Shown piece by piece: positions 9,384 through 15,593 of a DNA stretch of 20,570 nucleotides (its first letter is position 1; each line of letters opens with the position of its first letter). Below the pieces are notes generated by a model. It had not been told where the DNA came from, did not search any database, and worked only from the letters and a program-made list of their open reading frames with translations. A program made the translations under genes and the position numbers. Origin of the DNA: a virus; the IMG/VR virus record IMGVR_UViG_3300025423_000107, positions 1 through 20,570 of that record; one strand, written 5' to 3'.

Positions 9384-9446
9384 TGGGCGTTGCCCTAATT
9401 GCCCTCCCATAGCATAATTACACTATTACTCAAATTGGATACTATC

Positions 9447-12071
9447 GTGCCCGACAAGTTACCCCCACACATTCGTGCTCAGATCGAAGACTTCAAGCGT
9501 AAAGCCACGCACAACGAAGCACTGAGTAAAGAATACCGGGACAAGTACGATCGGACGCACACACCTAACCAACCGACCTATGAGCAATGGCTCAAGGACA
9601 ACGGTAAGCAAAGAATGGCTAAAGGCGGCACCGCAGACCTAAAAGAGATGCGTGAATACATCCTCCAGCGTGAAGGCACCCATGGGGCAAAACGTCTAGA
9701 GCGTGCCGCTGATGAGATACCCAACCTTGAGAAGATGTATCACACTGATGCCCTAAAGAGTGCGTTTAGTGGTGACAACGCTAGAGCTGTAGCTACCATT
9801 AATCCCAAAGACTTTGAGAAGTACGCCATGCCACTTCCCATGAGTTTGGCTAATGACAAAGCTTATTTTAGAGATAACGCTCGTAATCCTACTATGCGTG
9901 AAGCATTTATGGCATCAGGTCTGACCAATGAACAATGGCACGAATTGAGCGATGTGCAAAAAATGGACGTGTTTAATGCATTCAGTAAGAAGCATTCTAA
10001 GATGCGTGTCAATCAGCCTATGGACTATGACCAGTACATCAAGCACTTGGCAAAGCTTAAGGGTGGATTCTCTGACGTGCCATTCCTGCAATTAAACAAG
10101 CAGGAGCAAGGATTGCCTATCACGCCCCACATCAGTGGGCATGAAGGCCGTCACCGTAGCCGAGCTCTCGCATCCAAAGGCGTAAATAAATCTTTGGTAC
10201 AAGTCCACCCACGAGCTGAACTGCGTGAACCATTCCCTCGTCGTAGTCATGAGGAGTACATTGATGCATTGCGTAAAGAAATGGCAATGACTGGAAACAT
10301 GGTTCGCCCTGAAGATGAAGACATCTATGGCTCAGGACAGATCAAGACAGTTAAACGCCCACCGATTCAATTGCCTGACCTCTATGCAGGAGGCGGCGAC
10401 GTACAAGGAAAACCTATGAATACCCCAACACTGGCACAGATGCGTCATAGCATCAACACCCATGGCAATCCTGAAATCATGGACAACATTGGTATCAATG
10501 AAGCCATGGACATGGATCCCAAGATCTTTGTTAGTCCTAACCCACACGATTCAGGAGTTCCTGCAACAGGTGGCGTAGCTGATAGCCATGGCCTGCCAAT
10601 TGGTGGAGTAGATACCAATAACATGCAACCCGGACAACAGTTAAACCCACAAGATCCTAGTCAACAGCAACAACCCGGTCAGGCACCACAAGCTGGACAG
10701 CCTCCAGCTCCCGGCGGTATGCCTACAGGTGCACCCGGTGGAATGCCAAGTGGCCCAACACCTCCTGAAGGCAATATGCTGTCTATGACTCCTCAAGGTC
10801 AGACCATGCAAGCTATGCAAGGTGACCAAGGCCAGCAACAACAGCAACAGCCACAGGGATTAGCAGAAGGTGGACAGCCTAAGCGTATGTTCAAAATCCA
10901 AACAGCTCATCAACATGAGGCGAGAAAAGAACCTGAGTTCACGCCCTATGAGCCAAAAGACATCAGCATTAAGAAATTGGCACGAGCATTCGATGAGGCA
11001 ATAGCTCACCACAGGAGCCTGCCAAACGAAGAGCGGATCATGAATAGCTTCAATGCCGCACAGAAGCTGGGCAAGATTATTGGCGTGAACCCTAACGGAA
11101 TGACTAAAGACTTGCTGGGTAAGAATGCCAAGTTGCTCAAGACCGAGCAAGGCAAAGTAGAAGAACTCAAGCTTCCTGATGGACGTGGCGTAGAGACTAC
11201 TGGTTTGGCCTTGGCTCCAGCGTACGAAGAAGAAGGATTTACCACCTGCCCTAATTCAGCATCCTGTAAGAAAGAGTGCTTGGGTAAGACATCGGGCAAC
11301 TATCATAAGCTGGGTGGCGGTGCTGACCTTTCCGAGTTCAAAGGCCCACGTTTGAACAGTCTAAAGAAGACTCAGGCGTTCTTGCATGACCCACATTCAT
11401 TCGCAGTACGTCTACACGATGAGATCCAAGCCGCTAAAGAGATGGCTGGAGCAAACAACAATCACCTAGGCGTACGCTTAAACGTACTATCGGACATCAA
11501 CCCACGAGTACACAAGTCTATTATCGAAGCACACCCTGACGTTACCTTCTATGACTACACCAAGAACAACACTAATCCGATAGCACCGAACCACCATTAC
11601 ACCTACTCTTCTACTGGTGTAAGCCAAGAAGGCGTAGAGAATCCAAACACCAACTGGAAGCAGATGCGTAAGCGTCTAACTGGTGGCGACAACGTAGCCA
11701 TGGCATTTAGCCACAAGGGCCACATTCCTGAGACTGTTCATGATGAAGAAACAGGCCAAAAGTTCCGAGTAATCAATGGTGACACCCATGATTTCCGTCC
11801 GATGGATCTGCAACCGGAAGGGAAACATGGAGTTATTGTTGGTCTTAAGAACAAGAAAGCAACTGGTAGAATGAACGAGGCTCATATCGATTCACAGGGA
11901 TTCTTTGTTCACCATGATCCTAAAGAAAAGATTGTGCTCAATAAGAGTGGTAAGCCGATCTATGCAAGAGATGCTAAAGGCAAGACCATTGCACAGAATA
12001 AAGAAGTACGGATCAAGCCACAGTATGAAGAAATGAAACTGGCTACTAATGATGATGGGGATAAAGTATGA
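9447..12071 (+). CDS. Large composite phage protein: ParB-like N-part, Pro/Gln linker, DUF7227-like C-part
   Basis: 874 aa from the GTG at 9447 (TTGGA upstream); an in-frame TTG at 9399 would add 16 residues. Residues about 50-125 hold a YILQREGxxGAKRLERAADxIPNLE module I recall from large virion-associated phage polyproteins. Residues about 231-241 are GHEGRHRSRAL, similar to the ParB/Srx nucleotide-binding box. A Pro/Gln/Gly/Met-rich linker spans about 393-478. The C-terminal part has C601/C607/C611 (CPNSASCKKEC), NVLSDIN near 681 and FYDYTK near 702, resembling DUF7227. KGG/GGG/EGG punctuation occurs at the domain joins (AKGGTAD, YAGGGDV, LAEGGQP). It lies between TerL and portal. I infer an internal virion or DNA-modifying protein; neither is proven. 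Confidence 0.8.
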   Translation: MPDKLPPHIRAQIEDFKRKATHNEALSKEYRDKYDRTHTPNQPTYEQWLKDNGKQRMAKGGTADLKEMREYILQREGTHGAKRLERAADEIPNLEKMYHTDALKSAFSGDNARAVATINPKDFEKYAMPLPMSLANDKAYFRDNARNPTMREAFMASGLTNEQWHELSDVQKMDVFNAFSKKHSKMRVNQPMDYDQYIKHLAKLKGGFSDVPFLQLNKQEQGLPITPHISGHEGRHRSRALASKGVNKSLVQVHPRAELREPFPRRSHEEYIDALRKEMAMTGNMVRPEDEDIYGSGQIKTVKRPPIQLPDLYAGGGDVQGKPMNTPTLAQMRHSINTHGNPEIMDNIGINEAMDMDPKIFVSPNPHDSGVPATGGVADSHGLPIGGVDTNNMQPGQQLNPQDPSQQQQPGQAPQAGQPPAPGGMPTGAPGGMPSGPTPPEGNMLSMTPQGQTMQAMQGDQGQQQQQQPQGLAEGGQPKRMFKIQTAHQHEARKEPEFTPYEPKDISIKKLARAFDEAIAHHRSLPNEERIMNSFNAAQKLGKIIGVNPNGMTKDLLGKNAKLLKTEQGKVEELKLPDGRGVETTGLALAPAYEEEGFTTCPNSASCKKECLGKTSGNYHKLGGGADLSEFKGPRLNSLKKTQAFLHDPHSFAVRLHDEIQAAKEMAGANNNHLGVRLNVLSDINPRVHKSIIEAHPDVTFYDYTKNNTNPIAPNHHYTYSSTGVSQEGVENPNTNWKQMRKRLTGGDNVAMAFSHKGHIPETVHDEETGQKFRVINGDTHDFRPMDLQPEGKHGVIVGLKNKKATGRMNEAHIDSQGFFVHHDPKEKIVLNKSGKPIYARDAKGKTIAQNKEVRIKPQYEEMKLATNDDGDKV

Positions 12072-15131: not shown

Positions 15132-15593
15132 ATGAGTGAGCAACAACCTATTCCCACTATTGATGGGAATGACGGAACGCCTGATCCAACTGAGTTGGCT
15201 TGGGCCTTTCCTGATGTAAAGCCGGGACAGCGTCCTTTTGGCGGTCGAGTGATTATTCAACTGCGTCGTATTAAAAAAACCGCAGGCCGAATCATCATCG
15301 TAGATGAAACTAAAGAGAATGAGAAATGGAACAACATGATCGGTAAGGTCGTGGCTGTTGGCCCATTGGCATTCAAGAACAGAGACACTATGCAACCATG
15401 GGCTGAAGGCTCTTGGGCTGAAGTTGGTGACTATGTTCGTGTTCCTAGGTGGGGTGGTGATCGTTGGGAGCGTTTTGACCCAGCAGAAACTGACTCAGAC
15501 TACAAAGAACCAGTTTTATTTATGACTATTAATGACCATGAACTGATTGCGGCAGTCACTGACGACCCGTTATCGTTCAAAGCCTACGTTTAA
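15132..15593 (+). CDS. GroES-like co-chaperonin
   Basis: A 153-aa product. Residues 36-57 (FGGRVIIQLRRIKKTAGR then IIIV) match the first strand and mobile loop of GroES, in which a hydrophobic tripeptide binds GroEL; here it is within RIIIV. GKVVAVGP at 71-78 is the central GroES signature. VGDYVRVPRWGG at 98-109 matches the GDxVxxxxYxG region, and a C-terminal INDHELIAAVTDD matches the closing strand. It is longer than GroES (~97 aa) by an N-terminal tail and an insert (FKNRDTMQPWAEGSW). By analogy with T4 gp31 and RB49 CocO it may replace or adapt host GroES to fold the capsid protein. AAAGGA precedes the start by 5 nt. Confidence 0.85.
   Translation: MSEQQPIPTIDGNDGTPDPTELAWAFPDVKPGQRPFGGRVIIQLRRIKKTAGRIIIVDETKENEKWNNMIGKVVAVGPLAFKNRDTMQPWAEGSWAEVGDYVRVPRWGGDRWERFDPAETDSDYKEPVLFMTINDHELIAAVTDDPLSFKAYV

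What the first reader, a model, noticed from the sequence alone, without database searches (positions are those of the whole stretch)
9447..12071. Composite 874-aa protein joining a ParB-like box and a DUF7227-like Cys domain
A GHEGRHRSRAL box, an ~85-residue Pro/Gln/Gly/Met linker and a CPNSASCKKEC domain with NVLSDIN and FYDYTK are in one polypeptide between TerL and portal. ParB/Srx folds bind CTP or ATP; the C-terminal Cys trio could hold a metal or Fe-S cluster. If packaged, it could be an injected effector; if not, a DNA- or nucleotide-modifying enzyme that acts near packaging.
Basis: partly seen in the sequence, partly recalled or inferred. Interest (0 to 1): 0.6.

Follow-up and report, generated by a model that had tools for sequence, protein, structure and literature searches.

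The report
Mix-and-match phage cargo protein
This virus gene makes one large protein built from swappable modules, probably packed into the virus head and injected into the host bacterium with the DNA; related viruses swap modules in the same slot, and many of the joints carry the same short "A-x-G-G" tag, which may be where the protein is cut apart.

Summary
The reading frame is real: one uninterrupted 874-890-aa protein (start probably TTG 9435) between TerL and portal. The box, the Pro/Gln/Gly/Met linker and the cysteine trio lie where stated. The C-terminal half is Pfam GP88 (PF17338, E=7e-20), not DUF7227. Its fold is a confident model; its only three Cys form a conserved C-x5-7-C-x3-C after strand 1, as in radical-SAM enzymes, but no fold match is significant. 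The larger point was missed: this is one member of a hypervariable modular family in the TerL-portal slot of many phages (at least 177 viral loci encode the N-module). Relatives fuse the same modules to ART-PolyVal, LPD23, PcfJ, GNAT, lysozyme and GDSL domains, so it belongs with 'polyvalent proteins', predicted to be injected. Modules tend to be bounded by a protein-level motif, [YMKF]-A-x-G-G-x-[V/I]; near-identical phages swap cassettes at the base after one such motif (window 9630). Most likely a polyvalent cargo protein with AxGG module junctions, possibly cleavage sites. No protease was identified; packaging, injection and cleavage are inferred.

The parts
9435..12071 (+). Modular polyvalent-type protein, 878 aa if started at TTG 9435 (874 from GTG 9447, 890 from TTG 9399)
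   Evidence: homologous start in L041
9435..9611 (+). N-terminal tail module (up to aa 55 of the 874 numbering), 79-90% identical in L004, L029, L041, L092
9612..9629 (+). AxGG junction 1, RMAKGG; DNA identity with L094/L029/L004 (96-97%) ends at base 9630
9630..10379 (+). ParB/sulfiredoxin-like module (aa 62-311)
   Evidence: AlphaFold2 pLDDT 92.2, pTM 0.84; Foldseek Osa, PadC, ParB, Srx; at least 177 viral loci
10137..10169 (+). GHEGRHRSRAL box; H-E-G-R-H-R invariant in 56 aligned sequences
10380..10397 (+). AxGG junction 2, LYAGGG; the module ends in P-[D/E]-x-Y-A-x-G-G in 77 of 79 distinct ORFs
10398..10856 (+). Linker module: conserved TPTLAQMR...NIGINEA segment, then Pro/Gln/Gly/Met-rich stretch
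   Evidence: in L016-L022 the reading frame begins here
10857..10874 (+). AxGG junction 3, GLAEGG
10875..12068 (+). GP88 (PF17338 / phrog_1617) domain with preceding helices
   Evidence: PF17338 E=7.4e-20, phrog_1617 E=4.7e-31; AlphaFold2 pLDDT 89.1, pTM 0.87
11247..11279 (+). Cys triad C601-x5-C607-x3-C611, the only cysteines in the protein
11475..11570 (+). RLNVLSDIN ... FYDYTKNN strand-end motifs (R-L-N, S-D, F-Y-D-Y-T-K-N-N invariant in 38 sequences)

Best explanation
The gene encodes a phage polyvalent-type cargo protein: a string of independent domains made as one polypeptide from a hypervariable slot between TerL and portal. I infer that it is loaded into the head and delivered with the DNA. 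In this phage the cargo is a ParB/sulfiredoxin-like domain, probably an NTP-binding NTPase or nuclease working through the GHEGRHR arginine box, plus a GP88 domain, probably an Fe-S protein on a radical-SAM-like partial barrel. Modules are joined at a short linear motif, [YMKF]AxGGx[V/I], the common junction through which modules are exchanged between phages and perhaps cut apart by a protease acting in trans. Shown: one reading frame, GP88 assignment, modularity, enrichment of the motif at junctions, fixed genomic slot. Inferred: packaging, injection, enzyme activities, cleavage.
For: GP88 match. Confident models of both halves, ParB/Srx proteins heading the fold matches of the N half. Relatives combine the same modules with ART-PolyVal (E down to 2.9e-37, up to three copies), LPD23, PcfJ, GNAT, GH108 lysozyme and GDSL; ART, GNAT, lysozyme and LPD domains are typical of polyvalent proteins (PMC5512222). 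Slot: 44 N-module ORFs have TerL upstream and portal downstream, no counterexample seen. A.GG 153 observed vs 37.7+-5.8 in shuffles; similarity breakpoints within 15 aa of a motif 53% vs 11% random; ART modules end 10 aa before the motif in 18 of 22 instances; 141 low-similarity contexts show Y/M/K/F at -1 and V at +5 with varied synonymous codons. DNA mosaic: window about 97% identical to L094 and L029 up to base 9630, then a foreign cassette, then 96% again from 10365 with L029.
Against: The window's own protein carries no Pfam domain named for polyvalent proteins; the link is through relatives. No zincin MPTase or other protease was found in the polyproteins scanned, or in the 20 proteins scanned from the complete relative ctpbd312. 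Foldseek PDB hits for both halves are individually non-significant (best E 0.04 and 0.28). No virion proteomics. In other phages GP88 is a stand-alone late gene beside the portal, so fusion is not obligatory. The statistical instances are partly homologous, not independent; about 47% of breakpoints are not within 15 aa of a motif.
Confidence: 0.68

Rival explanations
1. The AxGG motifs are not cleavage sites but docking or packaging tags: each module ends in a short peptide that binds portal, scaffold or capsid interior, so that any module inserted between two tags is loaded.
For: Tags also lie near the very C terminus with only a short tail after them; 20 of 186 low-similarity downstream contexts carry an amphipathic xxMRxxL-like peptide vs 3.5 in shuffles; no protease found; another late protein also holds several tags, the 449-aa protein near MCP of ctpbd312.
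Against: A double glycine with fixed Ala and an aromatic or Met before it resembles sites of GG-specific proteases (general knowledge); Gly-Gly is an unusual core for a binding peptide.
Confidence: 0.3
2. The motifs are only flexible hinges left by repeated recombination; the protein acts intact, possibly as an internal head protein without enzyme activity.
For: Low-complexity Pro/Gln/Gly/Met linker; late-gene location.
Against: The motif has specific neighbours (Y/M/K/F at -1, V at +5) over 141 contexts, more than a neutral hinge needs; modules in relatives include catalytic families (ART, GNAT, lysozyme, GDSL); active-site-like boxes are invariant.
Confidence: 0.2
3. The protein is not packaged: it is a late intracellular enzyme (nucleotide- or DNA-modifying) that works near the packaging machine, as in the first reader's second option.
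For: Always next to TerL and portal; ParB/Srx-like and Cys-cluster domains could both fit nucleotide chemistry.
Against: The same slot accepts lysozyme and ART-PolyVal modules in relatives, which make most sense during or after injection; the modules share no packaging-related chemistry.
Confidence: 0.15

Closest known systems
Phage polyvalent proteins (Iyer et al. 2017, PMC5512222)
   Same: Several unrelated domains in one polypeptide, variable domain order, late-gene location in terminase-portal phages; relatives carry ART-PolyVal, LPD23, GNAT and lysozyme.
   Different: No zincin metallopeptidase detected; recurrent AxGG module junctions, not found in the searched text of that paper; N module not matched by any Pfam ParB family; GP88 and PcfJ not mentioned in that paper's main text.
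GP88 / Gene product 88 (PF17338, phrog_1617)
   Same: Whole C-terminal domain matches, well above the curated cut-off (72.2 vs 24.4 bits).
   Different: Here fused in a multi-module protein, while several hits in isolated phages are short stand-alone proteins.
DdrB-like ParB domains (phage P1 type, polyvalent)
   Same: ParB/Srx-type fold next to virion genes in multidomain phage proteins; conserved arginine.
   Different: No Pfam match to any ParB family in 56 members even at E<=1.
Osa / PadC / ParB / sulfiredoxin (solved structures)
   Same: Best-ranked fold matches of the N module.
   Different: E 0.28 or worse, TM-score about 0.3 or less; extra N-terminal helices; no such match in the PDB profile search.
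Radical SAM enzymes (QueE, viperin, LIAS, HydE)
   Same: Cys triad in the loop after strand 1 of a beta/alpha repeat fold; they appear among the weak fold matches.
   Different: Cx5-7Cx3C instead of Cx3Cx2C; no significant fold match.

Membership tests
Polyvalent proteins | Two or more domains of unrelated activity in one polypeptide | tested here: met
   ParB/Srx-like plus GP88 in one frame; relatives with ART, GNAT, PcfJ, lysozyme, GDSL
Polyvalent proteins | Shares the polyvalent domain network (ART-PolyVal, LPDs) | tested here: met
   Met in relatives by homologous modules (L004, L032, L045, L095, L097, L101, L123), not in the window protein itself
Polyvalent proteins | Late-gene location near virion genes of a terminase-portal phage | tested here: met
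   TerL-portal slot
Polyvalent proteins | Packaged and injected with DNA | not testable with these tools
   needs virion proteomics
Polyvalent proteins | Zincin MPTase processing domain (common, about 36%, not required) | tested here: not met
   no peptidase domain in the window protein or the 14 relatives scanned
GP88 (PF17338) | Score above Pfam gathering cut-off over most of the model | tested here: met
   72.2 bits vs 24.4, model 5-219 of 230
DUF7227 | Match to the DUF7227 profile | tested here: not met
   no DUF7227 hit in the Pfam scan to E=1 or among 38 GP88 relatives to E=10
ParB/sulfiredoxin superfamily | ParB/Srx fold | tested here: inconclusive
   top five Foldseek hits all ParB/Srx, but E 0.28-1.0
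ParB/sulfiredoxin superfamily | Conserved arginine box in the nucleotide pocket | tested here: inconclusive
   H-E-G-R-H-R invariant in 56 sequences, but its place in a pocket was not verified
ParB/sulfiredoxin superfamily | Sequence-profile match | tested here: not met
   no ParB family at E<=1 in 56 members
Radical SAM superfamily | Cx3Cx2C cluster motif | tested here: not met
   Cx5-7Cx3C
Radical SAM superfamily | (beta/alpha)6 partial barrel | tested here: inconclusive
   confident model with beta/alpha repeats, weak hits to QueE, LIAS, viperin, HydE
Radical SAM superfamily | Binds [4Fe-4S] and SAM | not testable with these tools
   biochemistry needed

The most novel reading that the evidence does not exclude
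A large group of phages keeps a hypervariable cargo slot between TerL and portal in which unrelated effector modules are joined and exchanged through one common peptide, [YMKF]AxGGx[V/I], cut by a protease acting in trans so that one gene delivers a swappable set of separate effectors: a phage counterpart of a viral polyprotein.
Probability: 0.33. Interest if true: 0.8.

Novelty: new variant of a known kind. Interest (0 to 1): 0.58.

Why it matters
If right, the AxGG junction gives a sequence handle for finding and parsing phage cargo proteins in metagenomes, predicts domain borders for many uncharacterised modules, and makes testable how multidomain phage effectors are loaded and released. 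It also places GP88, for which I found no assigned function, in an injected-effector setting and gives it a testable Fe-S hypothesis.

Tried and rejected
NCBIfam, and PDB sequence searches with the whole protein and both halves: nothing meaningful. DUF7227 assignment: no hit. Homology of GP88 with the alternative Cys module of L041/L045/L083 (CPGQTxGCGGG): hhalign probability 8%, E 0.004, while Pfam GP88 hits that module in L083 above cut-off (2.9e-7); left as likely but unproven. DNA-level recombination signal as the sole reason for the motif: synonymous codons vary, so a protein-level reason is favoured. Motif in the searched literature: no relevant paper. A protease in the complete relative ctpbd312: none found by Pfam among the 20 proteins scanned; the rest was not scanned. 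N module in isolated phages: no match.

Full report
Observation. The window is a 20,570-base linear IMG/VR viral contig. Frame 9447-12071 is open over 874 codons and can extend upstream to TTG 9399; comparison with L041 points to TTG 9435 as the start. The low-complexity stretch is far from chance: 63 of 85 residues are P/Q/G/M, while 1000 shuffles reach 40 at most. The same full-length gene occurs in contigs from two other metagenomes, so the fusion is not an assembly error.

C-terminal domain. This half is Pfam GP88 (E=7.4e-20) and phrog_1617 (E=4.7e-31); DUF7227 was not hit. An alignment of 38 sequences gave an AlphaFold2 model with pLDDT 89 and pTM 0.87. The protein has only three cysteines, 601, 607 and 611. 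Columns 105 and 109 of the alignment are Cys in 38 of 38 sequences and column 99 in 32 of 38; in the divergent sequences inspected the first Cys is merely shifted, giving C-x5-7-C-x3-C. In the model the Cys loop follows the first strand and is followed by beta/alpha repeats. Foldseek found no PDB match at E<=0.001; QueE, LIAS, viperin and HydE, all radical-SAM enzymes, are among the weak hits, and viral models named radical-SAM or Fe-S oxidoreductase appear below the GP88 proteins in BFVD. A radical-SAM-like Fe-S domain is therefore an inference, not a result.

N-terminal domain. Residues 62-311 have no Pfam family. A scan with its alignment found at least 177 viral loci encoding a relative, of which 80 were kept. 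A 56-sequence alignment gave a model with pLDDT 92 and pTM 0.84. The five top PDB hits are Osa (two entries), PadC (two chains) and ParB-CDP, all of the ParB/Srx superfamily; sulfiredoxins, Noc and other ParBs follow; every single E-value is weak (0.28 or more). I take the ParB/Srx fold as likely on the consistency of the list.

Modularity. Relatives differ in architecture. L004 carries an extra ART-PolyVal module of about 200 aa. L041, L045 and ctpbd312 (L083) have a different Cys-containing module in place of GP88. L010 and L015 have PcfJ modules, L015 also GNAT; L032 has two ART-PolyVal stretches. Larger N-module relatives have up to three ART-PolyVal stretches, LPD23, PcfJ, GH108 and GDSL. 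In L014 and L015 the protein is split into two genes at the junction after the N module, and in other phages GP88 is a stand-alone gene, often just 3' of the portal. The slot is constant: 44 N-module ORFs have TerL upstream and portal downstream, with no exception seen (some contigs are represented twice under different locus ids).

The junction motif. A.GG occurs 153 times in the 71 family ORFs against 37.7+-5.8 in composition shuffles, and A[^P]GG is 2.8 times denser than in other ORFs of the same loci. Breakpoints of pairwise similarity lie within 15 aa of a motif in 53% of 130 clusters against 11% for random positions. The ParB-like module ends in P-[D/E]-x-Y-A-x-G-G in 77 of 79 distinct ORFs wherever it sits in the chain, and the unrelated ART module ends 10 aa before the motif in 18 of 22 instances. 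Over 141 low-similarity contexts the element is [YMKF]A[KED]GGx[V/I/A], with varied synonymous codons. These instances are partly homologous, so the counts are not independent events; the stronger point is that unrelated module types end in the same peptide. At DNA level the window is about 97% identical to L094 and L029 and 96% to L004 up to base 9630, the first base after the GGC-GGC of RMAKGG; then comes an inserted ART cassette and a diverged N module (53-67% aa), and identity returns to 96-99% at or after the LYAGGG junction.

Mechanism. The published polyvalent-protein framework (PMC5512222) predicts packaging into the head, injection, and often processing by a zincin domain. Here no zincin or other protease domain was found in the scanned polyproteins, so if AxGG is a cleavage site the protease acts in trans and is unidentified. 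A docking role for the motif is the main rival; the C-terminal tags and the downstream xxMRxxL-like peptide (20 of 186 contexts vs 3.5 expected) keep it open.

Verdict. Observation confirmed; interpretation partly supported; the finding is a new variant of the polyvalent-protein theme with an apparently undescribed junction motif (no description was found in the searched open-access library, which does not exclude one elsewhere).

Noticed in passing
15132-15593: A GroES-type co-chaperonin (Cpn10, PF00166 E=8.9e-6) lies in the head operon; in relatives it starts about 2.8-3.1 kb after the end of the modular protein.
   Followed up: partly
L166 27302-28651 (-), ctpbd312: A 449-aa protein near the major capsid gene has six A-x-G-G motifs (QYAKGG, GKASGG, GYATGG, GFAKGG, AFATGG, KFAEGG) and no Pfam match; a second possible cargo-type protein.
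   Followed up: no
L036-L044, ORFs up- and downstream of the GP88 gene: Large neighbouring ORFs (460-1313 aa) each hold 3-6 A-x-G-G motifs, so some phages seem to have several such proteins in a row.
   Followed up: no
L041 9100-10134, L045 5003-6592, L083 6505-8244: Alternative C-terminal Cys module (NTCPGQTxGCGGG...GTCFAPNAESQY) replacing GP88; weakly related to GP88.
   Followed up: partly
L014 ORF 1067-3187 and L021 ORF 5195-6010, C termini: Two ORFs in the same slot share the C-terminal tail PLIPKFKE.
   Followed up: no
1004-1276: Small ORF with VCGQEGPSDAHHIKQ, an HNH-like pattern, but no significant Pfam match.
   Followed up: partly
L166 12438-13382 (-), ctpbd312: A beta-ketoacyl synthase (PF02801 1e-15) is encoded among the late genes of the relative.
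   Followed up: no
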